Source: a virus. From it: a stretch of 36,584 nt of DNA. The stretch lies in IMG/VR virus record IMGVR_UViG_3300009173_000043, positions 1 to 36,584 of that record. The stretch is one strand, 5' to 3'. The first letter of the stretch is position 1, and each line of letters begins with the position of its first letter. The notes under the pieces were generated by a model. That model was not told the origin of the DNA, did not search any database, and saw only the letters and a program-made list of their open reading frames with translations. Shown piece after piece: positions 6,940 to 33,371 of this stretch. Position numbers and translations under genes: made by a program.

Positions 6940-9192
6940 GTGCCGGAGGCAGGCAAAATCAGAAGGATGGCGGAGGACGAGATCCCCATGCTCCCCATCA
7001 TGGAGCCTGGGTACAACCTCCGAGAGATGGCGAAGCAACTCGCCCTTCTTGAGGACCACCTGTTCCAGGAGGCCAAGCGATGCCCCGACTGCATCCGCAA
7101 GCACTTCCTCACCGTGGAGGCCCTGCTCGAGGAGGCCGTGACCCTCGACGAGTCCGGCGACCTTGCAGAGCAAATCCCCGAGGTCGTGGACTGGATCCGC
7201 GAGCTCCAGGGTGAGTGGATCGATGGAACCAACCCCGCAGAGATAGCACAGGCCCTCCGAGGACTCCGCAAGCAGGTGTCGGAGGACGTGTTCGACGTCC
7301 GCGAGCTCCAGGCATCCTGTGTAGCAACCAGATACGCCGCCCTCACCTTCACCGTCCACGGGTACGAGTATCCGGATGATGGCCCCCACGCGAAACTCAT
7401 GTCTCAGTACATGGCCCCGCCCGACGACAAGTACAGCGAGGCAAAGTGGAACCTGTACCGGGACTGGGCGAAGAAGCGGCGTGTGAGCAAGGACGACATG
7501 GAGGCCGTCCTGGAGGCGTTCGACAACGGCATGGCCAACTACGTCCTCCGAGGCCCCGCCCGCAAACCGAAGGATCTCGATGAGATCGCACGGCGCCTAC
7601 AGATCAAGGTGGGGACCAAGTCGCCCGCCGAGCGTGAGGACGAAGAGGTCGAGAGACTGGTCCGCAGGAATCCGACGAAGAAGCCGCCACGCCACGACCT
7701 CCGCCGGGAGCGCATCCGGGTGGAGGACGACCCCGACATCGAAGATCTCGGCCAGGAGGGGGACAAGGACATCTCCCGCAACTTCAAGCGCGTGGGGTCC
7801 GAGCTCATCTCGAGTGTGATCCGGCTCCACCACCTCAAACTTGTCACGGCCGTGGTTCGGCGGCGAGTTGGGAGTCATTCACCGGGTGACACTTGGAAGT
7901 CAGATAGCGGTGCCTGGTACGGGATGAGTCCCGCCGGGACCACGCAGGGGTTCGAGGACGATCAGGAAGCTGCCAAGGCCTTCGCCTCCGGCGGCGATGG
8001 GGAAGCACCCGAGGACGAGGCGCCCGAAGATACGGGTCCCTCTCGGGAGGATCTCGAGAAGGAGCTGGCCGAATCCGCCGGAAACGCGCACGACTCCATG
8101 GCGGACGCCGGCCTTCCGGACGCTTTTGACCAGGCCCTATCCGGCCTGGACGAGGCGGGGCAGGCCGAGATGGGCGCCGCGTATGCGGAGGCCCGGGCCG
8201 GATTGGTCGGTGGGGGACTATCTGCCGCCGAAGCGGAGAAGGCCCTGTCGGAACCCTACACGGGTAGCGACCCCAAGAAGCTCGGGGCGGCATTGGCCGC
8301 TGCGGAGTACGCCAAGAAGGTCACCCTGAACCCGCTCATGTCGGGTGGCCCGATGTCGCCCCCGGGAAACATCTCCCCTCCCTCCCCAGAGCAAGTGGCC
8401 CGCCGGACCACCGAATCCTTCGAGAATGCGAAGGACATGTCTACCGACCAGAGGAAGGAGCAGGCGGACGGCCTGCTCGAGGAGATGAAGGGACTCGACG
8501 AGGGAACCGCCAGACATGCGGAGGCCAAGGCCGCCCTCCAGGGGCTCCAGCTCGCTGCAATCGTGGACGGGGTGGACGAGGACGACTTCCCCGGCGGGAA
8601 GGAGGCGGCGCCTCCTAAGGCGTTCCAGTCGATGGTCAAGATGCTGGCCTCGCAGCCCGGCGGCCTCGCACTCCTCACGGCCCCCGCAGAAAAGATGTAC
8701 GAACCGGACCACAGGGCCCTGCTCCAGCAGTCGATGAACGGTCTCTCCGATGAGGCTTTCATGGAGGTCCTGGGCGGCTCCGACAGCGGACCTGGGTCCA
8801 TAGCCAAGATGCTTGAGGACGCCGACGACCCTTCCATGAGGAGGCAACTCCGAGAGATGGCCATGGAGTGGCACATGGACGAGGCATCCATCCTGCCCGC
8901 CATCATCCAGGAGCAGAACCCGAATGCATCCCCACAGGAGATCACGGACCAACTCCGGGAGGCCGAGGACGACCAGGCCGACCTGGAGAGGCGCATCGGC
9001 GAGGGTTACGAAGACGACGGGGCCGATGAGGTTCTCCGGATCATAGAGGAGACAAGGCGGCAGCAAGTGGAGAACATTAGGGGGGAGGACGCCACCGGCC
9101 CTGCATCGGCCAATGCCGATGCATTTCTGGAAACTGGCGACCGCTCACAACTTCTCACAGGGACGGACCCCCCTCTCCCAAGCCCCCTGTGA
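6940..9192 (+). CDS. Large head-module accessory protein with N-terminal cysteine motif, 750 aa
   Basis: A GTG start lies 5 bases after AAGGAGG. The N-terminal ~70 residues are helical and contain CPDCIRKHFLTVEAL (about residues 48-62), a CxxC-xxx-H arrangement that may bind zinc. Around residues 285-350 a second small domain ends in GDTWKSDSGAWYG followed by a FEDDQEAAKAFASGG segment, a pattern I associate with short C-terminal modules of phage proteins. From about 350 to the end the sequence is acidic, Ala/Glu/Asp-rich and probably largely disordered or helical. No protease or nuclease signature is clear. Position immediately after the portal suggests an internal head or head-assembly protein (MuF proteins often sit here, but I do not see that domain). 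Function is unknown. Confidence 0.6.
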   Translation: MPEAGKIRRMAEDEIPMLPIMEPGYNLREMAKQLALLEDHLFQEAKRCPDCIRKHFLTVEALLEEAVTLDESGDLAEQIPEVVDWIRELQGEWIDGTNPAEIAQALRGLRKQVSEDVFDVRELQASCVATRYAALTFTVHGYEYPDDGPHAKLMSQYMAPPDDKYSEAKWNLYRDWAKKRRVSKDDMEAVLEAFDNGMANYVLRGPARKPKDLDEIARRLQIKVGTKSPAEREDEEVERLVRRNPTKKPPRHDLRRERIRVEDDPDIEDLGQEGDKDISRNFKRVGSELISSVIRLHHLKLVTAVVRRRVGSHSPGDTWKSDSGAWYGMSPAGTTQGFEDDQEAAKAFASGGDGEAPEDEAPEDTGPSREDLEKELAESAGNAHDSMADAGLPDAFDQALSGLDEAGQAEMGAAYAEARAGLVGGGLSAAEAEKALSEPYTGSDPKKLGAALAAAEYAKKVTLNPLMSGGPMSPPGNISPPSPEQVARRTTESFENAKDMSTDQRKEQADGLLEEMKGLDEGTARHAEAKAALQGLQLAAIVDGVDEDDFPGGKEAAPPKAFQSMVKMLASQPGGLALLTAPAEKMYEPDHRALLQQSMNGLSDEAFMEVLGGSDSGPGSIAKMLEDADDPSMRRQLREMAMEWHMDEASILPAIIQEQNPNASPQEITDQLREAEDDQADLERRIGEGYEDDGADEVLRIIEETRRQQVENIRGEDATGPASANADAFLETGDRSQLLTGTDPPLPSPL

Positions 9193-9342: not shown

Positions 9343-9975
9343 ATGTCACGAATCACTAAGCGGTCCGCTAAGGCCATCACCAATGACCTTGACCGACTCG
9401 CACAACTCTTCGAGAGCGCACACACTGAACTAGGCGTCCCTAAGAAGGTCGCCGCCGACTTCGCATACCGATGCGATCTCCTCTCCGACTATCTTGACAA
9501 GGCCGCTGGCGACGACGAGGACGCAGTCGAGGACATCGTCGATGGCGATGTCGAGAAGGTCACTGAGGCTGACGAGCCCTACATGGCCGACAAGACCGAG
9601 CAGGACGAGCTCACTGAGCTCGGCGACATGGTCGAAAGTGGCGGCCTCGGCAAGGGTGCCAACCTGAAGGCTCTGGCCGCGCAACTCATCCGCCTGGCAG
9701 ACGAGGAAGCCGATGACGAAGAAGCGGATGATGAAGAAGCCGATGACGAAGAGGCTTCCAAGAAGTCCGCCAAGAAGTCCGACGACGACGACGACGACGC
9801 TGACGATGAGGAAGCCGATGAGGAAGCCGACGAGGAAGCATCCAAATCTGCCAAGCGTCTTGCCAAGCATCTGCTCCGCCTCCTGAAGGCCGGTGACGAT
9901 GAGGGTGACGACGATGAGGCTGACGATGAGGAAGCTGACAAGGAAGCGAGTTTCGGCCACGGGTACTCGCTTTAG
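9343..9975 (+). CDS. Acidic repeat head protein, 210 aa
   Basis: The ATG follows GGAGG by about 10 bases and a candidate promoter by about 80. Residues 1-55 form a helical domain (LAQLFESAHTELGVPKK, then FAYRCDLLSDYLDK), followed by a segment containing DEPYMADKTEQDELTELGD and SGGLGKG. From about residue 119 there is a run of the pentapeptide ADDEE interrupted by basic SKKSAKK and SKSAKRLAKHLLRLLK segments, then more ADDEE. The strongly acidic, repeat-rich C-terminus recurs in the gene at 11909, also in the head module. I infer an internal capsid or scaffold-like protein. The repeats are also visible as 15-base DNA repeats. No enzyme motif is seen. Confidence 0.65.
   Translation: MSRITKRSAKAITNDLDRLAQLFESAHTELGVPKKVAADFAYRCDLLSDYLDKAAGDDEDAVEDIVDGDVEKVTEADEPYMADKTEQDELTELGDMVESGGLGKGANLKALAAQLIRLADEEADDEEADDEEADDEEASKKSAKKSDDDDDDADDEEADEEADEEASKSAKRLAKHLLRLLKAGDDEGDDDEADDEEADKEASFGHGYSL
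9700..9951 (+). repeat. 15-base repeats coding ADDEE pentapeptides
   Basis: Imperfect tandem units of GAAGCCGATGACGAA type encode (E)ADDEE. A first block spans about 9700-9840 and a second about 9903-9951. They are in frame within the acidic head protein and are interrupted by Ser/Lys-rich codons. Synonymous variation between units suggests selection on the acidic peptide instead of recent slippage. Confidence 0.7.
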
Positions 9976-11908: not shown

Positions 11909-13054
11909 ATGGCACGTGTACGAATGACACAACGGGGCCGCCGAGCGGCCAACCCACCCGCAAACCCGAGGGAGACCCCGGACCACCCCGCTTTCGAGCC
12001 GGATCCAGAAGTGGGGGACTACGGCATGAGCAGCGACTTCGCTGCAGAGCCTACTACGGGCCCATATCCGAACTCGGCACATCCCGCGACACCTGATGAG
12101 GGACCGTCCGACCATCCTGCAGCCAAGAAGGCAGCACGTGCCAAGTCAGCGCGTCAGCGCCGACGCGCAGCAGAGCGCAAGGCAGCCAAGTGCATCCGCA
12201 TCGCTCAGTCCATGCTCGGCCCCGTCGCCACCACGGCGCAGGTTGAAGACCAGGCGGTCGACCTTATGGATCTGTCGGACAAGGCCATCAACACGGCCCT
12301 CCGTCGTCTGTCCAACTCGTTCCTGTCCGAGGATCAGAATGATCCGGGCGCGGACACCCTGGCCCCTGAAGGCGAGCCTGTCATCCAGTTGGATCCCGTG
12401 GCTGAAATGCCGCTGATGTCCGACCACGACATTGAGGCTGAGGAGCTTCTGGCCCTGATGCTCGCAGAAGAGGCACCTGAGGCACCCGCTGTACCCGCAG
12501 CACCTGCCATGGAATCGCCGATGCCCGCTATGATGGAAGAGCCGATGGCTGACGAAGTCCCCATTCAGGCAGTTGGGGATGTTGTCCTTTCGCCTATGGG
12601 CGAGGATCCCATGGGTCTGGATGCCGCTCCCGCAACCGACGACATTCTCGCGGAGCTGTTCGGAGGCGGGCACATGGCCGCTGACGAGGAAGCTGACGAC
12701 GAGGAAGCGGATGACGAGGAAGCTGACGATGAGGAAGCATCCAAGTCCGCAGCCGACGAGGAAGCTGACGACGAGGAAGCTGACGACGAGGAAGCATCCA
12801 AGAAGTCTGCCAAGAAGGGCGACGACGAGGAAGCTGATGAGGAAGAGGCTGACGACGAGGAAGCTGATGAGGAAGAGGCTTCCAAGAAGTCCGCACGCAA
12901 GGCTGCCTCGAAGCAGCGTCCCCGAGGTCGCAAGGCCAGCAAGGGTGCAAAGACCCTCGGTGCCGTGACCAAGGCCGCAGCCAAGAGTGAGATCAGTGAT
13001 CTCAGCAAGCTGTGGGAAACTGCCCCTGACGTCAGTGACGTCTTCGGCGTGTAG
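11909..13054 (+). CDS. Acidic repeat protein, scaffold or internal head protein candidate, 381 aa
   Basis: The ATG follows GAGGAG by 8 bases. The N-terminus is Pro-rich and probably disordered (ANPPANPRETPDHPAF). Residues 70-140 are basic then helical, with KAAKCIRIAQSMLG near 91-104 followed by a helix-rich stretch. The middle is Met/Pro/Glu-rich. From about residue 257 there are ADDEE pentapeptides interrupted by SKSA, SKKSAKK and SKKSARK, then a basic RPRGRKASKGAK segment and an acidic end. Scaffolding proteins are often acidic, helical and located just before the capsid genes, as here. The gene at 9343 carries the same tract. It is followed by a strong terminator. Confidence 0.65.
   Translation: MARVRMTQRGRRAANPPANPRETPDHPAFEPDPEVGDYGMSSDFAAEPTTGPYPNSAHPATPDEGPSDHPAAKKAARAKSARQRRRAAERKAAKCIRIAQSMLGPVATTAQVEDQAVDLMDLSDKAINTALRRLSNSFLSEDQNDPGADTLAPEGEPVIQLDPVAEMPLMSDHDIEAEELLALMLAEEAPEAPAVPAAPAMESPMPAMMEEPMADEVPIQAVGDVVLSPMGEDPMGLDAAPATDDILAELFGGGHMAADEEADDEEADDEEADDEEASKSAADEEADDEEADDEEASKKSAKKGDDEEADEEEADDEEADEEEASKKSARKAASKQRPRGRKASKGAKTLGAVTKAAAKSEISDLSKLWETAPDVSDVFGV
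12676..12890 (+). repeat. 15-base repeats coding ADDEE pentapeptides (second copy)
   Basis: Tandem units of GACGAGGAAGCTGAC type run through three blocks separated by Ser/Lys codons. They are near-identical in protein sequence to the repeats at 9700-9951 and are in the same reading sense, about 3 kb apart. The two tracts are long enough to allow recombination that would delete the genes between them, yet the arrangement is intact. Confidence 0.7.
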
Positions 13055-21929: not shown

Positions 21930-22703
21930 ATGGCAAGTATAGAGTTCAAGAAGGGCAACCCCCTCAAGCTGAGGGCCACCACGCAAATCCACCTCGGCAA
22001 GGTTGAGAAATACATCAACGCTGGCGACATCATCGAGTTCGACGGGCAGACCCTCGACCTCGGGGGCGGTGAGATCCATAATCTTCCGCAACTCCGGGGA
22101 GCTGTCCTTTCGGGATGGCTCGTTCCTGAATCCGACACCACCACCGTGTATACGCCGAAGCCGGCAGACATCAAGATCAGGCCGGCCCTGTCCGCTGACA
22201 AGGAGCGGGGTGCCGCCATGAAGGTGGAGAAGGTGGAGCATGAGGAGCGCGTCGTGGGAACCATCGGCAAACCTGCCGAGAACACCGACAGAGGGGCCAG
22301 CGGTGAGGGCGTCCCCGTGGGGCGTGTCATGACACCTGCCGTGCAGACACCCATCGTGAAGGACTCCGCCTCAGCTGCGCGCGAGGCATCCAGACTCGAC
22401 TCGACCACCCCACCAAAGGTCGAGGCCACCGCCACCGGCGACGTCGATCAGCCCATCATTGGGGAGACCCTGACCGACATTCTCCCGAATGCGGCATCCT
22501 CTGGAAGGACAATCGCTGCGAAGCCCTCCGGTAAGAGCGTACGACTCGCCAACGGTGACGATTGGGACATGGGTCGGCACTGGCGCACCCGAGCCCGGGA
22601 CGCCCTGCGTAAGTACTCCGGAGACACCGCAGGGTTGGCCGCTGTGAGGGCCGTTGAGGTCCCTAGCGTCCACAAGTTCATTGACGGCCGGACCAACAAG
22701 TAG
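21930..22703 (+). CDS. Probable virion protein of unknown role, 257 aa
   Basis: The ATG follows GGAGGAG by 9 bases. The N-terminal ~65 residues are a small beta domain (FKKGNPLKLRATTQIHLGKV, then GDIIEFDGQTLDLGGGEIHNL). The middle (70-200) is low-complexity, rich in Lys, Glu, Ala and Thr, probably a flexible linker. The C-terminal 50 residues (DDWDMGRHWRTRARDALRKY region) are helical and basic, ending in VHKFIDGRTNK. Two folded ends joined by a linker suggests a connector or bridging protein, but I do not recognise the family. It precedes a structured intergenic element. Confidence 0.5.
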   Translation: MASIEFKKGNPLKLRATTQIHLGKVEKYINAGDIIEFDGQTLDLGGGEIHNLPQLRGAVLSGWLVPESDTTTVYTPKPADIKIRPALSADKERGAAMKVEKVEHEERVVGTIGKPAENTDRGASGEGVPVGRVMTPAVQTPIVKDSASAAREASRLDSTTPPKVEATATGDVDQPIIGETLTDILPNAASSGRTIAAKPSGKSVRLANGDDWDMGRHWRTRARDALRKYSGDTAGLAAVRAVEVPSVHKFIDGRTNK

Positions 22704-22776: not shown

Positions 22777-23184
22777 GTGTCGGAGAAGGACAGAAAAGCA
22801 AGTAGCCAGGCTGCATGGGCCCTTCTGACCGAGGGCGTTTCGGAAGCTCGCGTCCTCACCCACAGGGTGAGGCACATGCTTGACCGCGCACAGGCCGCCG
22901 CTGCCGAGTCAGCGGACCGGGAGGCGATCTACCGCGCACTCGGGGATCTTCTGGAGGGTGCTCCCGAGAGACTGGACAATCTTGAGCGTGTACTCGACCG
23001 GACCGGGTACGCCCTGTCGAAAATGGGCGAGGAGTTCCTCAAGGGACGTATCCCCCTGGATGACAGGTATGAGGTGGATGAGGCCGTGAAGGCTGTTCCT
23101 GGGTTCTCTCCTGGGACCCGCCGCAAGTCGTCCCCGAGCCCATCAAGGGTCACGGAGAGGTACTTGGTGCGGGGGAGAGGGTGA
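22777..23184 (+). CDS. Helical structural protein of unknown role, 135 aa
   Basis: A GTG start lies 5 bases after AGGAGG, which is sequestered in an inverted repeat. The protein is almost entirely helical in pattern (SEARVLTHRVRHMLDRAQAA, REAIYRALGDLLEGAPERLD, LDRTGYALSKMGEEFL) and ends in a basic Pro/Ser/Arg tail. It overlaps the next gene by GTGA, so synthesis of the large PAP2-SWIM protein is probably coupled to this one. I do not recognise a named family. A partner or chaperone of the downstream protein is possible but unproven. Confidence 0.6.
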   Translation: MSEKDRKASSQAAWALLTEGVSEARVLTHRVRHMLDRAQAAAAESADREAIYRALGDLLEGAPERLDNLERVLDRTGYALSKMGEEFLKGRIPLDDRYEVDEAVKAVPGFSPGTRRKSSPSPSRVTERYLVRGRG

Positions 23185-25208
23185 AGTCCAGGGAAGCCTA
23201 CCGATCTCCTGACTCGCTACCGGGTACGACGACTTACCGGGATGAGGGATCCGCGAAGGGACTCCCGCCAGACAAGGGCGATGGCGGCGGCCATCAAGAC
23301 CCCGATTCCGCCTCGAGGCGGGAGCGTGCGCTCCCCGCGCCCGGTGGATCCGACTCCGAGGAGAAACCCCCCTCCCAGCCAGTCTACAACCTTCCTGGCC
23401 CGTCCGACTCCCACCCCGACGGCAGCCTCCACAAGGACAGGGTCCGCACCAAGGGTGTGCCAGGCGAGCAGTACGATCCAGAGCCCATCGACCAACCTGG
23501 CGGTGGTTTCCGCCGGAGGACTCTCCAAGGAGTAGAGGCCGGCAAGAAGAAGCCCTTCCCGACGAACAAGCAAAAGAAGCAGAAGGGGAAGGCGTACCTG
23601 TACTCTCGCCGCTGGTACAAGAAGAACCGCAAGAAGAAGATCATGAAGGTCAAGCGGAAGTACAGGGTCGAGAAGAACAAGGGCTGGAAGAAGAGAGACA
23701 TCAAGAACCGGAACAACCCATCCAAGGACAAGAGGTTCCAGCGTAAGCCGGGGGGTGGCTACAAGGATCCCGCAGATCGCTCCAAGGATTGGAGGGGCGG
23801 GGACAAGCGGACCAAACTCAAGGTGAAGCGGAAGAACGCCGCATTCGATGAGGGCCTCCTCCGCAGGACCCCACCAGCAGCTTCCACAGTCGGGGCCGAG
23901 CTGGAACTCATGCTCGAGCTCCAGGAGGATCTCCGGGGCGATTTCATGGACTTCATCCTGTGGTTGGAGGATGTCGGACCCGCCGAGGTGTTCTTTGCGG
24001 AGCTGGAGGAACTCGGCCTCGAGATGCCCCTGGATGAGGTGTATGAGATAGCGGAAGGGGCGGCAGCGGTGGCCCGAACCCTCAAGGACACTTTCGCCAG
24101 GCCAAGACCTGTCGACACAGCTCTCGAGTACGGCATCCCTCTGGAGGCCGTGGGGGAGCACCCCTCATGGTCCTATCCGAGTACCCATGTCCTCCAGGCA
24201 GAGCTTCTCGCACGGTACTTGTCCCATATCCATCCAGAGTACGGGGAGCATTTCCGCTCCCTGGCCGACGATGTCGCCCGTTCCAGGGTGGTCGGGGGGA
24301 TGCACTTCCCGAGCGATTGCGAGTACGCAATCGACCTCGCCGATGAGATGGAGGAAGACATGATTCAGGAGTGGGGGTACTCGGACGACGCCGCTGGCCG
24401 TGTGGCCAGGCGGGCCGACTTCTTCCGCGACCAGGAGTGGAACCCTCAAAGGTCCGACGACTCGAGGGAACCGAGCTCCGTCCCCGAAGGCGATGATGTC
24501 CCCTCCCAGTCCCCTTCCGGCCTGACATCGTGGGTAGGTCAGCAGGAGGAGCGGGAGAACGGGACCCCAGCACATGGGCACCCAGTAGACCGAGACCGTC
24601 CTGGAGCTCCAGGCTCCGCCAGGGTGATCCCGAGAGGCCAGGGGTTCTCTGGCCGGACCGCCAACCGCCAGCTCGTGGCAGCCAAGCTCGCCGAGATCAT
24701 GGGCGGCACGGCGCAGAAGGTCCAGCAGAGGGCCGACACCCTGTCGGTCAAGATGACCCGGGTGATCGGGAAGTCCCCCATGTGGCTGTTCAACGTGTCC
24801 GGCGGGGAGAACATCCACCGGGTCAGACTCAAGGCTGTGCGGAAGGGGAACGTCCGGACGCTCGCCAAGGCCGACGTCCTGGTGAGCTGCGACTGCGAGT
24901 TCTGGCGGTGGCAGGGTCCCGAGCACTGGGCGAAGGCCGGGGGGTATCTCTATGGACGCCCCCGGGGATCCGCCTCGAGTCCCGCCGTTCGCGACCCGAA
25001 CGGGGAACACCGGGCCTGCAAGCATGTGGTCGCCGTTCTCCGGAAGGCGAAGGGGTACAGCTTCAGGACGAGGAACCAAGATAAGAAGATGCGGGAGCTC
25101 CGGCGGAATAAGACCGCCTCCCCGTGGGATCTTCTCATATCTGTCTTGATCCCCTCACCGGGTAATGTGGCGGAGAGACACGGGAGGAGGCGAGATGCCG
25201 AACTATGA
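23181..25208 (+). CDS. PAP2-type phosphatase and SWIM zinc-finger fusion protein, 675 aa
   Basis: The start is a GTG in a GTGA overlap with the previous gene. Residues 1-120 are Pro/Gly/Asp-rich and probably disordered. Residues 121-220 are extremely basic (KKPFPTNKQKKQKGKAYLYS, then KKNRKKKIMKVKRKY), suited to binding DNA or RNA. Residues 240-390 are a helical domain with all three PAP2/haloperoxidase motifs: KX6RP (K302, R309, P310), PSxH (P333, S334, H336) and SRX5HX3D (S368, R369, H375, D379). No transmembrane helix is visible, so it resembles soluble members of that superfamily, which cleave phosphomonoesters through a phospho-His. At the C-terminus CDC (570-572) and CKH (613-615) form a SWIM-type CxCxnCxH zinc site. 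A virion protein with an intact phosphatase active site is unusual. The substrate is unknown. Confidence 0.75.
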   Translation: MKSREAYRSPDSLPGTTTYRDEGSAKGLPPDKGDGGGHQDPDSASRRERALPAPGGSDSEEKPPSQPVYNLPGPSDSHPDGSLHKDRVRTKGVPGEQYDPEPIDQPGGGFRRRTLQGVEAGKKKPFPTNKQKKQKGKAYLYSRRWYKKNRKKKIMKVKRKYRVEKNKGWKKRDIKNRNNPSKDKRFQRKPGGGYKDPADRSKDWRGGDKRTKLKVKRKNAAFDEGLLRRTPPAASTVGAELELMLELQEDLRGDFMDFILWLEDVGPAEVFFAELEELGLEMPLDEVYEIAEGAAAVARTLKDTFARPRPVDTALEYGIPLEAVGEHPSWSYPSTHVLQAELLARYLSHIHPEYGEHFRSLADDVARSRVVGGMHFPSDCEYAIDLADEMEEDMIQEWGYSDDAAGRVARRADFFRDQEWNPQRSDDSREPSSVPEGDDVPSQSPSGLTSWVGQQEERENGTPAHGHPVDRDRPGAPGSARVIPRGQGFSGRTANRQLVAAKLAEIMGGTAQKVQQRADTLSVKMTRVIGKSPMWLFNVSGGENIHRVRLKAVRKGNVRTLAKADVLVSCDCEFWRWQGPEHWAKAGGYLYGRPRGSASSPAVRDPNGEHRACKHVVAVLRKAKGYSFRTRNQDKKMRELRRNKTASPWDLLISVLIPSPGNVAERHGRRRDAEL

Positions 25209-25584
25209 GTATCAGTGCGGGAGTTGTGAGCTCCACTTCGAGCAACGCCTCCCTATCGCCCGTCATGATGAGGCCCAGGACTGCCCCGACTGCGGGACGC
25301 CTGAAGCCAACAAGCTCGTGTCCGCCGTGGGGTTCATCCTCAAGGGCGACGGATGGGCGGGCAAGAACAACCGCATCAAGAACCAAATGGCGCAGAAGAA
25401 TCGACGTCTGGACACTAAAGGCGGTGAGATGAAGCGAGATGCTCCAGTGGCCTCGCTGTCTCCCAATGTAGAGGGTGAACAGACGGGGAGCTGGGCGGAA
25501 GCCAAGGCACTTGCAGCCAGTAAGGGCAAGGAAACAACGTCATACGACTCCTATATCCGCAAGGAGAAGGCAGGTAGATCATGA
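25195..25584 (+). CDS. FmdB-type zinc-ribbon protein, 129 aa
   Basis: I choose the ATG at 25195, 4 bases after GGAGG, over an upstream in-frame GTG; it overlaps the previous gene by 14 bases. The start MPNYEYQCGSCELHFEQ, followed by a second pair CPDCG about 28 residues later, is the FmdB regulatory-protein zinc ribbon (CxxC, then CxxC). The rest is basic and low-complexity (AQKNRRLDTKGGEMKRD) with no further domain. In bacteria the family is associated with gene regulation; phages carry it next to structural genes with an unknown role. It overlaps the following gene by ATGA. Confidence 0.75.
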   Translation: MPNYEYQCGSCELHFEQRLPIARHDEAQDCPDCGTPEANKLVSAVGFILKGDGWAGKNNRIKNQMAQKNRRLDTKGGEMKRDAPVASLSPNVEGEQTGSWAEAKALAASKGKETTSYDSYIRKEKAGRS

Positions 25585-26294
25585 GAGGCATCGTAGCTAG
25601 CATCCGGGAGAGACTCCCGAACCACATCGACATGGTGATTCCGGTTGAGGCCGGGGTATCCCAGTACCGCATCCGTGCAGCGAACAACCTGGACACGGCG
25701 GCAACTGGGACCACGGATGTCGTGTTCACCGTGCAGTCGAAGGGTTTCTTCCGCTCTCCGGGCGTGGCTTCCAAGAAGCACCACATCCCCCACGGATCCG
25801 GTCGGGACAAGGCCGTCACCCGCGCCATCTTCGATCCAATGGACTACTACGACCCCACCGTGGGGGCCACCGATGTGATCCCGCAGGATGATGACATTCT
25901 GTTCATGCGGATCGAGCGTTACCTGGACGCCCTGGACAACTGGGAGGCCGCTGGACCGATCAACGTGATCCTCCCCGCTTCGGCCATGAGGGTGGGTCGT
26001 CCGATCCTCACGCTCTACGGCACGGCCCCGCAAGTGGGGGTCGCTGGGAGCAAGCCCCCTGCTACCGCCATGCACCTCCACCTGCCCGCTTATACGGCGG
26101 AGATGAAGATCATCAACCTCGATGCTGCCAACGACCTACTGGTCGCGTTCGGCACGGGACAGACGCTCGCCGTCGTCCCCGCAGGCGGCGACATCCGGCT
26201 CTCGTCGGCGAATGCCACGGAGATTCTGCTCGGAGCTGACACGGGCGCCGTCCTGTTTTCGGCGTTCCTGACTCTGATGAATGGCCCGTCGTAA
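25581..26294 (+). CDS. Structural protein of unknown role, 237 aa
   Basis: The start overlaps the preceding stop as ATGA. The protein is a beta-rich mix with an alternating hydrophobic pattern (NNLDTAATGTTDVVFTV, ILFMRIERYLDALDNWEAAG, INVILPASAMRVGRPILTLY). A conserved-looking central stretch (RSPGVASKKHHIPHGSGRDK, then FDPMDYYDP) is followed by strand-rich sequence ending in FSAFLTLMNGPS. It has no signal peptide, cysteine motif or enzyme motif. The composition suits a tail- or head-decoration protein. I cannot name it. Confidence 0.5.
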   Translation: MRGIVASIRERLPNHIDMVIPVEAGVSQYRIRAANNLDTAATGTTDVVFTVQSKGFFRSPGVASKKHHIPHGSGRDKAVTRAIFDPMDYYDPTVGATDVIPQDDDILFMRIERYLDALDNWEAAGPINVILPASAMRVGRPILTLYGTAPQVGVAGSKPPATAMHLHLPAYTAEMKIINLDAANDLLVAFGTGQTLAVVPAGGDIRLSSANATEILLGADTGAVLFSAFLTLMNGPS

Positions 26295-26316
26295 CGGGGG
26301 GTGCGGTGGACGTGTG

Positions 26317-26334
26317 CGGTACGCCGTCTATACC
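26317..26334 (+). promoter_or_regulatory. CGGTAC-N6-TATACC element, candidate promoter
   Basis: CGGTAC at 26317-26322, six bases, then TATACC at 26329-26334 in the 113-base gap before the gene at 26408. TATACC is close to a -10 hexamer. This is the third 6-base-spaced copy; the others are at 22710 and 28429. Confidence 0.35.
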
Positions 26335-26407
26335 GATGATAAATGATAGGAAGCCGGAGCCAAGTCCAAGTCGGGCAGGGCCATGAACATTCAAGGAGAA
26401 ATCTGAA

Positions 26408-27151
26408 ATGCCTTACATCTGCCTACGACGAACTGACATGGGGGACGCCCTTTCGCAGGGAACCTTCTACGTCGGAGACCTGACCCCCAACGCGGGCCAG
26501 AAGATTCTACACGCTGGAGAGCCCGTCTTCGGGATCGACCCCACTGGGAACAACGTGGAGCCTTCGGCCTATGCTGGACCCATCATCCCCGTGGCGACGA
26601 GCGCTGGTTCCACCGTGCTCACTGAAGACCCGGGCGACACGAGTGGCGTCACCAGTGCCGAGTACACGGGCCTATCGGCCTTCCTGCTCGACAACTGCGT
26701 GGACGGTGCCGATGCGGGCACCCTGTCCGCAGCCGACGCCCTCACCATCTCCACAGCCCTTGTGGCCGAGATGAGGACCAACGGCGGTGCCATGACGAGC
26801 GCAGCTATTGAGACCATCATCCAGGTCACCGACGCTGCGGTCACCGTGGCGGCCTCGGAGATTCAGAACGCTGGCTTCGTTGCCGGCGTCCTGCGTTGTC
26901 TGGCTGGTGCGACCTACACGGTTCCCATCACGACCGAGATCTTCGCTGCTGGTGGTAATGCTACCGCTGCTGGTGGTTCGTTCACTGCTGCGAACACCCG
27001 CCGCTGTGGTCTGATCACTCTGACGGACAGCCTCACGGAGTCCATTCGTGTCGGTCAGCTCGAAGGGTTCATCGCTGCGGGGTTCTCATACCTGGGAACC
27101 GCTGCTGCAGCCGTGGTGGTGTATGACGACGATGGTTCCGTCCTTTCGTAA
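26408..27151 (+). CDS. Ala/Thr-rich virion protein, 247 aa
   Basis: The ATG follows AAGGAGAAATCTGAA. The protein is rich in Ala, Thr, Gly and Val, with almost no Lys. It begins with a short beta module (PYICLRRTDMGDALSQGTFYVGDLTPNAGQ; quoted segments are shorter in the sequence) and continues with a helix-rich middle (ADALTISTALVAEMRTNG). The segment TYTVPITTEIFAAGGN and the closing VGQLEGFIAAGFSYLGTAAA suggest a beta-sandwich or tail-tube-like fold, but this is uncertain. It is followed by a hairpin that could terminate. I infer a structural protein; a tail-tube protein is one possibility. Confidence 0.5.
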   Translation: MPYICLRRTDMGDALSQGTFYVGDLTPNAGQKILHAGEPVFGIDPTGNNVEPSAYAGPIIPVATSAGSTVLTEDPGDTSGVTSAEYTGLSAFLLDNCVDGADAGTLSAADALTISTALVAEMRTNGGAMTSAAIETIIQVTDAAVTVAASEIQNAGFVAGVLRCLAGATYTVPITTEIFAAGGNATAAGGSFTAANTRRCGLITLTDSLTESIRVGQLEGFIAAGFSYLGTAAAAVVVYDDDGSVLS

Positions 27152-27152
27152 G

Positions 27153-27174
27153 TGATCGGGTCTTGATCCGGTCA
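27153..27174 (+). terminator. Weak hairpin after the 247-aa gene
   Basis: TGATCGG (27153-27159) pairs with CCGGTCA (27168-27174), including one T-G pair, around an 8-base loop. It directly follows the stop codon. There is no T-run, so it may be a processing or attenuating hairpin more than a true terminator. Confidence 0.35.
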
Positions 27175-27227
27175 GGGGGCGTTGAAGACGTTCTCTGGCT
27201 TCACTTATGGAGGAGGGCATTCACGGC

Positions 27228-27461
27228 ATGGTAGAAGAAAAGCGATACAGAACCTCGGATCTTTACTACGCAGCATATCTGCGCGTGGCAGGGGTCCCTC
27301 TCATTGAGACTGCTCGTGAGGGCGGCAGGGTCTATTTCGTTTTCGAGTCCGTTGAGGGCCTCCGTGACTTGAAGAACGAGTATTTCAACCGCAAGGCAAA
27401 GGTTCCGGCCTTGAGCTATGCCGACGAGATCAGGTCCATGAAGGCCCTGACCCACATGTAG
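27228..27461 (+). CDS. DUF5659-like small protein, 77 aa
   Basis: I choose the ATG at 27228 because GGAGGAGGG at 27209-27217 serves as its ribosome binding site; an ATG at 27207 would place that site inside the gene. The sequence RTSDLYYAAYLRVAGVPL, then GRVYFVFESVEGLRDLKNEY, fits the DUF5659 pattern of short phage proteins (a helix, a beta hairpin and a second helix). The family has no known biochemical function. It lies among structural genes. A second similar small protein is at 28845. Confidence 0.6.
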   Translation: MVEEKRYRTSDLYYAAYLRVAGVPLIETAREGGRVYFVFESVEGLRDLKNEYFNRKAKVPALSYADEIRSMKALTHM

Positions 27462-27528
27462 GGATCCCCATGCACCCGAGACCAGTCTCCGGCTTCCACC
27501 CGATGGTCACGATTGAGGGGGCCCCCAC

Positions 27529-28422
27529 ATGGCGATAGCATTTTCACCCGGGCAGGAAACGAGTCGGGGCGACCTGGACATCTTCCTTACGAACTCGTCG
27601 GGCAACTCATCGAATGCCTACGCCATCTCCTATGCTGTCTACTTCTTCGACCCCGCCACCGAGGAGGAGGTCCTCATCGGATCCGCCACCAGGACGGCGG
27701 TGAATCCTACGGTCGGGGAGTACTATGCTGCGCTTCTGGTACCCCCTTCAGCGGCGGCCGGGACCTACCGCATCCGGTGGACATTCAACGAGTTTTCCAG
27801 CAGCCCCGCACAGTTGGTCGTTCAGGAGTTCGCAGTCGTGGAGTCTTCAGCTCTGCTTGCAGCCACCTACTCGGATCAAGAGCAGTCGATGATCGACAAA
27901 CTCCGGCTCCTCCTCCGTGACCAGAATCCAGACAAGTTCTATCACTTCAGGCCGCCAGAGCATGAGGGGGCCGTAGGGTCCTACAACCGGGTCTTCGGGC
28001 AGATCTGGGAGGATGCCGAGCTCCTGGAGTACATCGAGCGCGGCCTCGACTGGTGGAACATGTTCCCGCCAGAGACAGAGGAACTCAACACCGTCCACAA
28101 CCTGGTGATCCGGAAGCCCACCTGGCGCACTGCGATTCTGTGGTCGGCCATCACGCACGCCTGCTTCGCCCTCATGGCGAACTGGACCGCCGACGAGTTC
28201 GATTACTCTATTGGGGGCGTCAGCCTCAGCCTCGAGCGGTCGTCCAAGTATGAGAGCTTGAAGTCGAACGCCGAGGGGCAGTTCGACAAGGCCACTGAAG
28301 CTAAGGCCCGCACGGTGAAGATCATGCGGGGGCTCTCGCAACCCAAGTACGGGATCGGTATCCGCTCCGCCTTCGGTCCCCATGTGGGACGTGGCGTCCT
28401 CGGACCCCGCAACTTTCTGTAG
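27529..28422 (+). CDS. Structural protein with N-terminal Ig-like domain, possible head-tail connector, 297 aa
   Basis: The ATG follows GAGGGGG. Residues 1-105 are a beta-sandwich-like domain (ISYAVYFFDPATEEEVL, then GTYRIRWTFNEFSSSP). The rest has a helix-rich core (DKLRLLLRDQNPDKFYHFRP, then WNMFPPETEELNTVHNLV) and a C-terminal tail with IGIRSAFGPHVGRGVLGPRN. Similar C-terminal tails occur in phage proteins I believe belong to neck or structural positions, but I cannot confirm the family. It is not an enzyme as far as can be seen. A neck or adaptor role is a guess from its position among small virion genes. Confidence 0.5.
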   Translation: MAIAFSPGQETSRGDLDIFLTNSSGNSSNAYAISYAVYFFDPATEEEVLIGSATRTAVNPTVGEYYAALLVPPSAAAGTYRIRWTFNEFSSSPAQLVVQEFAVVESSALLAATYSDQEQSMIDKLRLLLRDQNPDKFYHFRPPEHEGAVGSYNRVFGQIWEDAELLEYIERGLDWWNMFPPETEELNTVHNLVIRKPTWRTAILWSAITHACFALMANWTADEFDYSIGGVSLSLERSSKYESLKSNAEGQFDKATEAKARTVKIMRGLSQPKYGIGIRSAFGPHVGRGVLGPRNFL

Positions 28423-33294: not shown

Positions 33295-33371
33295 TGGCGT
33301 CCCCGGCAGGAGTCGAACCTGCGGCCTACCGCTTAGGAGGCGGTCGCTCTATCCGTCTGAGCTACGGGGAC
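33295..33371 (-). tRNA. tRNA-Arg (anticodon CCU)
   Basis: On the minus strand the 77-base gene folds into a full cloverleaf. The acceptor stem is GTCCCCG/CGGGGAC with discriminator G and an encoded CCA end. The D arm contains AGCTCAGACGGATAGAGC. The anticodon arm is ACCGC-CTCCTAA-GCGGT, giving CCU, which reads AGG. The T arm is GCAGG-TTCGACT-CCTGC. It lies at the 3' end of a minus-strand gene cassette. AGG codons are common in the phage structural genes, so it could support their translation. Confidence 0.95.

What the first reader, a model, noticed from the sequence alone, without database searches (positions are those of the whole stretch)
23181..25208. Virion-module protein with an intact PAP2 phosphatase signature fused to a SWIM zinc finger and a highly basic tract
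All three PAP2 motifs are present with correct spacing (KX6RP at 302-310, PSxH at 333-336, SRX5HX3D at 368-379), yet no transmembrane helices are seen. Most PAP2 enzymes act on membrane lipids or are soluble acid phosphatases or haloperoxidases. Here the domain sits behind 100 very basic residues and before a CxCxnCxH SWIM finger. A phosphatase tethered to a nucleic-acid-binding protein in a capsid gene cluster could act on nucleotides, DNA ends or host lipids at entry. I know of no characterised phage system of this form.
Basis: partly seen in the sequence, partly recalled or inferred. Interest (0 to 1): 0.75.

Follow-up and report, generated by a model that had tools for sequence, protein, structure and literature searches.

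The report
Phage DNA-binding protein carrying a phosphatase
A very large bacterial virus has swapped an apparently intact phosphatase enzyme into a probable DNA-binding protein encoded among its head genes; relatives carry other enzyme-like parts in the same protein, so it may be a tool injected into the host with the viral DNA, although nobody has tested this.

Summary
ORF 23181-25208 (GTG, 675 aa) has a basic tract (44 K/R, 7 D/E in residues 121-220), all three PAP2 motifs, and a CxC-x40-CxH SWIM finger. PAP2 scores E=8.5e-9 in Pfam. An AlphaFold model of the domain (pLDDT 90) matches soluble class A acid phosphatases (TM 0.72). The six catalytic residues are invariant in 47 phage PAP2 domains.

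The protein is the one PAP2-bearing member of a conserved huge-phage family (about 88 proteins): a C-terminal SWIM domain, usually a basic tract, and a fixed place in the head-gene module. The closest relative (L014) has another domain where PAP2 sits, so PAP2 is a swapped-in module. Other members carry ART-PolyVal, DUF4258-like, ParB-like or GNAT-like domains, the pattern of "polyvalent" phage proteins.

In five related contigs PAP2 is instead fused to a giant portal-adjacent protein with topoisomerase IB, a 2H phosphoesterase or a CCA transferase.

Most likely reading: a DNA-binding carrier, packaged with the genome, that delivers a soluble phosphatase acting on nucleotides or nucleic-acid ends. 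Packaging, delivery, activity and substrate are inferred. Verdict: new variant of a known kind.

The parts
23181..25208 (+). PAP2-SWIM fusion gene, 675 aa, GTG start overlapping the previous stop
   Evidence: identical protein in a second contig
23181..23540 (+). conserved N-terminal region (residues 1-120), with YN.PGPS and VRT..VPGE.Y motifs shared with relatives
   Evidence: alignments with L003 and L014
23541..23840 (+). basic tract, residues 121-220 (44 K/R, 7 D/E)
   Evidence: tract of at least 30% K/R over 80 aa in 43 of 70 family proteins
23859..24395 (+). PAP2 acid-phosphatase-like domain (about residues 227-405) in a slot that holds another domain in L014
   Evidence: Pfam E=8.5e-9; AlphaFold pLDDT 90.3; Foldseek to acid phosphatases; L014 comparison
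24084..24110 (+). PAP2 motif 1, KX6RP, residues 302-310
24177..24188 (+). PAP2 motif 2, PSTH, residues 333-336
24282..24317 (+). PAP2 motif 3, SRX5HX3D, residues 368-379
   Evidence: catalytic positions of the three motifs invariant in 47 phage PAP2 domains
24612..25055 (+). conserved C-terminal domain (about residues 478-625) that defines the family
24888..25025 (+). SWIM-type zinc finger C570xC572-x40-C613xH615
21930..22703 (+). conserved syntenic neighbour, function unknown
22777..23184 (+). conserved syntenic neighbour immediately upstream, function unknown
25165..25584 (+). conserved downstream neighbour with an FmdB-type zinc ribbon
   Evidence: Pfam Zn_ribbon_8 E=4e-11; synteny
25581..28422 (+). 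further conserved neighbours of the module (ORFs at 25581, 26408, 27207, 27529; the last weakly connector-like)
6940..9192 (+). portal-adjacent large protein whose homologues in related contigs carry PAP2 and topoisomerase IB on the N-terminal side

Best explanation
The gene encodes a carrier protein of the huge-phage head module. A long basic tract and a C-terminal SWIM zinc finger bind nucleic acid, and a slot between them holds an exchangeable domain, here a soluble PAP2 phosphatase of the class A acid phosphatase fold. Most likely the protein is made late, packaged in the capsid with the DNA through the basic and SWIM parts, and enters the host with it. There the PAP2 domain would remove phosphates from soluble substrates, most plausibly nucleotides, nucleotide signals or nucleic-acid ends, by the PAP2 route (H375 forming the phospho-histidine, H336 as acid, D379 assisting, K302, R309 and R369 holding the phosphate). 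Shown here: the domains, the intact catalytic residues, the fold match, the domain swap, the conserved gene place, and the recurrence of PAP2 in another head-module protein of the lineage. Inferred: nucleic-acid binding, packaging, delivery, phosphatase activity and substrate.
For: PAP2 domain and fold: Pfam E=8.5e-9; phmmer to acid phosphatase 7f17, E=3e-10 for the domain; AlphaFold pLDDT 90.3, pTM 0.83; Foldseek to 7f18 TM 0.72 and to E. blattae, PhoC and PhoN acid phosphatases, probability 1.00. Catalytic positions invariant across 47 phage domains. Domain swap: L014 is 62% identical over the C-terminal part and 44% over the N-terminal part but lacks PAP2. Conserved head-module place between the same neighbours in most related contigs; in the cultured phage Tunturi_5 the family member lies two genes after the major head protein. 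Variable domains in the family: ART-PolyVal, DUF4258, GNAT-like, ParB-like. PAP2 in 6 of 67 contigs with the SWIM gene, five of them in a giant protein upstream of the prohead protease, with TopoIB and in some 2H phosphoesterase or CCA transferase. Elsewhere PAP2 is fused to a protein that matches capsid maturation proteases (L101). Polyvalent phage proteins are predicted to be packaged and injected (PMC5512222).
Against: No virion proteomics was found for any member (Tunturi_5 paper: none located). Nucleic-acid binding by the basic tract and SWIM finger is inferred from sequence only. PAP2 is in only one virus of the SWIM family, so it cannot be needed for the family's shared role. The window's PAP2 sits on a long branch, so its substrate class cannot be read from near relatives. 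Fusion partners suggest nucleic-acid or nucleotide work but do not prove it.
Confidence: 0.5

Rival explanations
1. The SWIM/basic protein is an assembly or DNA-handling factor that works in the infected cell or in the capsid lumen and is not delivered; PAP2 modifies nucleotides or proteins late in infection or is a local accessory of assembly.
For: The family has a conserved place in the assembly module, and the smaller members are little more than the C-terminal domain, so its shared role is probably structural or DNA-related. In L101 PAP2 is fused to a protein matching capsid maturation proteases, which act before release.
Against: The variable enzyme-like domains (ART-PolyVal, DUF4258, GNAT-like, ParB-like) fit host-directed enzymes better than assembly factors.
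Confidence: 0.25
2. PAP2 acts on host membrane lipids (for example undecaprenyl pyrophosphate or phosphatidylglycerol phosphate) at entry.
For: Many PAP2 enzymes are lipid phosphatases; the PAP2 match in one Acinetobacter phage is annotated BcrC.
Against: No transmembrane helix; the fold matches soluble acid phosphatases (TM about 0.7) much better than the membrane PAP2 enzymes 5jki or PgpB (TM about 0.4); the domain is strongly acidic (net -28 in residues 225-405) and tied to probable nucleic-acid-binding parts.
Confidence: 0.1
3. The domain is a haloperoxidase-like or inactive PAP2 fold with only a structural role.
For: Vanadium haloperoxidases share the fold and the anion pocket (weak Foldseek matches).
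Against: Haloperoxidase matches are much weaker (E about 0.2 or worse) than acid phosphatases (E about 1e-4); all catalytic residues are invariant across 47 phage domains.
Confidence: 0.06
4. The fusion is an assembly artefact joining two genes.
For: No other PAP2-SWIM fusion was found in about 88 proteins.
Against: A separate 60 kb contig encodes the same uninterrupted protein, and both flanks of PAP2 are colinear with L014 in one frame.
Confidence: 0.02

Closest known systems
Polyvalent proteins of phages and conjugative elements (Iyer et al. 2017, PMC5512222), e.g. P1 DdrB and DarB
   Same: Multi-domain architectures with exchangeable enzyme domains, encoded among virion genes of portal-terminase phages; one relative carries the ART-PolyVal domain.
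   Different: PAP2 is not mentioned in the main text of that paper, and SWIM only for SWI2/SNF2 ATPases. The basic tract plus C-terminal SWIM chassis was found here only in huge-phage-type contigs and one cultured jumbo phage. Packaging is untested.
Bacterial class A non-specific acid phosphatases (7f17/7f18, PhoN, PhoC, E. blattae)
   Same: PAP2 fold, three motifs, soluble, best sequence and structure matches.
   Different: Internal domain of a large phage protein, no secretion signal, and WSYPSTHV instead of the GSYPSGHT signature.
SWIM zinc-finger proteins (PF04434)
   Same: CxC...CxH ligands; several family members exceed the Pfam cut-off.
   Different: x40 between the ligand pairs; not attached to a SWI2/SNF2 ATPase or a transposase.
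T4 Alt and other internal, ejected head enzymes
   Same: The proposed working mode: an enzyme carried in the head and ejected with DNA.
   Different: No sequence relation was tested or claimed; ejection is not shown here.

Membership tests
PAP2 superfamily (PF01569) | Score over the curated cut-off | tested here: met
   35.7 bits against 27.2
PAP2 superfamily (PF01569) | Three motifs KX6RP, PSGH-like, SRX5HX3D | tested here: met
   motif 2 is PSTH
PAP2 superfamily (PF01569) | PAP2 helical fold | tested here: met
   AlphaFold and Foldseek
PAP2 superfamily (PF01569) | Phosphatase or haloperoxidase activity | not testable with these tools
   needs an assay
Class A non-specific acid phosphatase | Closest fold and sequence among solved PAP2 proteins | tested here: met
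Class A non-specific acid phosphatase | GSYPSGHT signature (recalled from PROSITE) | tested here: not met
   the window reads WSYPSTHV; so it is not filed as a class A member
Class A non-specific acid phosphatase | Secreted periplasmic enzyme of about 25-27 kDa (recalled) | tested here: not met
   internal domain of a 675-residue protein whose first 120 residues are polar
SWIM zinc finger (PF04434) | CxCx(n)CxH | tested here: met
   n = 40; present in 69 of 70 family proteins
SWIM zinc finger (PF04434) | Score over the curated cut-off | tested here: inconclusive
   window 13.5 bits against 19.6; L005 23.2, L008 21.6, L018 21.6 pass
SWIM zinc finger (PF04434) | Zinc and nucleic-acid binding | not testable with these tools
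   needs biochemistry
Phage polyvalent proteins | Two or more distinct functional domains in one polypeptide | tested here: met
   PAP2 plus SWIM plus basic tract; other combinations in relatives
Phage polyvalent proteins | Encoded next to virion structural genes of a portal-terminase phage | tested here: met
   terminase, portal, major head protein in the window; synteny
Phage polyvalent proteins | Carries domains typical of polyvalent proteins | tested here: inconclusive
   ART-PolyVal E=1.7e-7 only in L034, a relative without the conserved neighbours; the window protein itself has no such domain
Phage polyvalent proteins | Packaged in the virion and delivered into the host | not testable with these tools
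   no proteomics found for any member

The most novel reading that the evidence does not exclude
A lineage of huge phages uses a basic-SWIM protein of the head module as an interchangeable chassis for packaging enzymes with the genome. A soluble PAP2 phosphatase is one such cargo, carried either by this chassis or by the giant portal-adjacent protein with topoisomerase IB, so that a phosphatase (perhaps aimed at nucleotide signals or nucleic-acid ends) is injected at the start of infection.
Probability: 0.4. Interest if true: 0.75.

Novelty: new variant of a known kind. Interest (0 to 1): 0.55.

Why it matters
It adds a phosphatase to the enzymes found in polyvalent-type phage proteins and points to a conserved, domain-swapping carrier family in phages with contigs of up to about 600 kb. 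If the protein is packaged, it is a natural system for loading enzymes with viral DNA and delivering them into bacteria, and possibly a phage counter to nucleotide-signal defences. A cultured phage (Tunturi_5, gp336) carries a family member without PAP2, so the packaging step can be tested now.

Tried and rejected
Full-length single-sequence AlphaFold: mean pLDDT 42, not used. Tree of 53 PAP2 domains to ask whether the window's domain came from the portal-adjacent proteins: the window sits on a long branch, unresolved. Search for a member near the major head protein genes of Bacillus phage G, Mycobacterium phage I3 and Rctr197k, whose head proteins are related: the SWIM profile finds only Tunturi_5. 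Literature search for PAP2 with jumbo phages and for SWIM with phage capsids: nothing relevant. NCBIfam: no match. Annotated phages similar to a solo PAP2 protein (L109): none. Assembly artefact: rejected. Chance motif: rejected.

Full report
1. Observation. Window 23181-25208 on the + strand is an open frame of 675 codons that starts with GTG right after GGGGAGAGG and overlaps the stop of the preceding gene. In 200,000 shuffles of the protein no sequence carried all three in order and spacing. Pfam gives PAP2 at E=8.5e-9, above its cut-off. No stretch is hydrophobic enough for a membrane helix. Residues 121-220 hold 44 K/R and 7 D/E. C570xC572-x40-C613xH615 is the only CxC...CxH in the protein. 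A longer contig from IMG/VR (60 kb, 99.96% identical over 14 kb) encodes the same protein.

2. The PAP2 domain. By sequence its best solved relatives are bacterial acid phosphatases (7f17, E=3e-10 for the domain; PhoN and others weaker). AlphaFold on an alignment of 47 phage PAP2 domains gives an all-helical model with pLDDT 90.3 and pTM 0.83. Foldseek puts soluble class A acid phosphatases first (7f18, TM 0.72, probability 1.00), with membrane PAP2 enzymes (5jki, TM 0.42) and haloperoxidases (E about 0.2 or worse) behind. The columns of K302, R309, P310, P333, S334, H336, R369, H375 and D379 are invariant among the 47. The strict class A signature (GSYPSGHT, recalled) is not met (WSYPSTHV), so I say 'class A fold', not 'a class A enzyme'.

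3. The protein is a family. The C-terminal domain was first found again in LR745208.1, a 485 kb uncultured phage, in a 521-residue protein with the same N-terminal region, basic tract and C-terminus but no PAP2. Scans of viral contigs then gave 75 loci, and a later scan 18 more. In 70 non-redundant proteins the SWIM ligands are nearly invariant (C570 and C572 invariant, C613 and H615 at 90% or more), 69 have the motif, mostly with the same 46-residue span, and 43 have a tract of at least 30% K/R over 80 residues. Pfam matches SWIM in 41 of the 70 at E up to 0.01, several over the cut-off. In most of these contigs the gene lies among the same neighbours as in the window, and near the major head protein where that is held. 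In cultured phage Tunturi_5 the member is gp336, two genes after the major head protein.

4. PAP2 is a swapped-in module. The closest relative, L014, is 62% identical over the C-terminal part and 44% over the N-terminal part; at the place of PAP2 it has a different, shorter stretch. None of the other family proteins, about 88 in all, carries PAP2 in the SWIM gene. Other members carry other domains: ART-PolyVal in L034 (E=1.7e-7), DUF4258 in two members and a similar N-terminal motif in about 20 loci, a weak GNAT match in L012 and a weak ParB match in L057. L034 lacks the conserved neighbours, so it is a more distant case.

5. PAP2 elsewhere in the same phages. Of 67 contigs with the SWIM gene, 6 have a PAP2 match over the Pfam cut-off: the window's own virus and five others, two of which are near copies. 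In all five others PAP2 lies in a frame of 1226-1714 residues that is homologous, in its later part, to window ORF 6940-9192 and lies upstream of the prohead protease gene, and downstream of the portal gene where that gene is found. These proteins also carry topoisomerase IB, and some a CCA-transferase head domain or a 2H phosphoesterase. In the window that large protein is shorter (750 aa) and its PAP2 is in the SWIM gene. So in these contigs every PAP2 over the cut-off is part of a large head-module protein, in one of two carriers. The contigs are mostly fragments, so absences are not proven. The tree does not tell whether PAP2 moved from one carrier to the other or was captured twice. In other phages PAP2 is found alone, with HNH, with a CCA transferase, or with a protein matching capsid maturation proteases.

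6. How it most likely works. Basic tract and SWIM finger suggest nucleic-acid binding; the place in the head module suggests assembly or packaging with DNA; the exchangeable enzyme domains suggest a cargo aimed at the host. This is the logic of polyvalent proteins, which are predicted to be packaged and injected, with P1 DdrB and DarB as known head components (PMC5512222). The company of topoisomerase IB, 2H phosphoesterase and CCA transferase in the sister carrier, and the soluble fold, point to nucleotides or nucleic-acid ends as substrates more than lipids. Everything from binding to substrate is inference; I put the whole chain at about 0.5.

7. Known or new. The PAP2 fold, the SWIM finger and the polyvalent principle are known. 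I found no earlier description of PAP2 in such proteins: the 2017 polyvalent paper and the 2021 jumbo-phage review (PMC7824862) do not contain the word PAP2 in their main text, and the review does not mention SWIM; supplements and subscription papers were not searched. I file it as a new variant of a known kind.

Noticed in passing
window 6940-9192; G029, G032, G033, G035, G038 (loci L173-L176, L178): The portal-adjacent gene is a second domain-swapping carrier: homologues of 1226-1714 aa with PAP2 and topoisomerase IB, some with a CCA-transferase head or 2H phosphoesterase, fused ahead of the conserved part.
   Followed up: partly
G007 (contig of L019), about 53573-56857 and 42681-45362, - strand: Both the portal and the prohead protease matches are split in two within one long open frame (1100 and 903 aa), with about 1.2-1.6 kb in between: inteins or inserted domains are likely.
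   Followed up: no
L101:1507-4194: An 895-aa protein with an N-terminal PAP2 domain whose later part matches capsid maturation protease/MuF fusion proteins of Streptomyces phages.
   Followed up: partly
L078: The SWIM gene lies on the opposite strand to all its conserved neighbours, although they stay on both sides of it: an inversion or relocation of a single gene within the module.
   Followed up: no
L088 (Tunturi_5, PP885688.1), gp336: Annotated 'tail protein', but it is a SWIM-family protein two genes after the major head protein; the annotation is doubtful.
   Followed up: partly
L018, L020, L021, L024, L025, L027, L030, L032, L035, L036, L041, L045 and others: About 20 SWIM-family loci carry an N-terminal domain with a HAQYRM-like motif that weakly matches DUF4258 (the BrnT-like group).
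   Followed up: partly
window 9343-9975 and 11909-13054: Two proteins on either side of the prohead protease gene have long DDEEA repeats, perhaps scaffold-like acidic regions.
   Followed up: no
window 33295-33371: A single tRNA-Arg (CCT) on the - strand, downstream of the structural genes.
   Followed up: no
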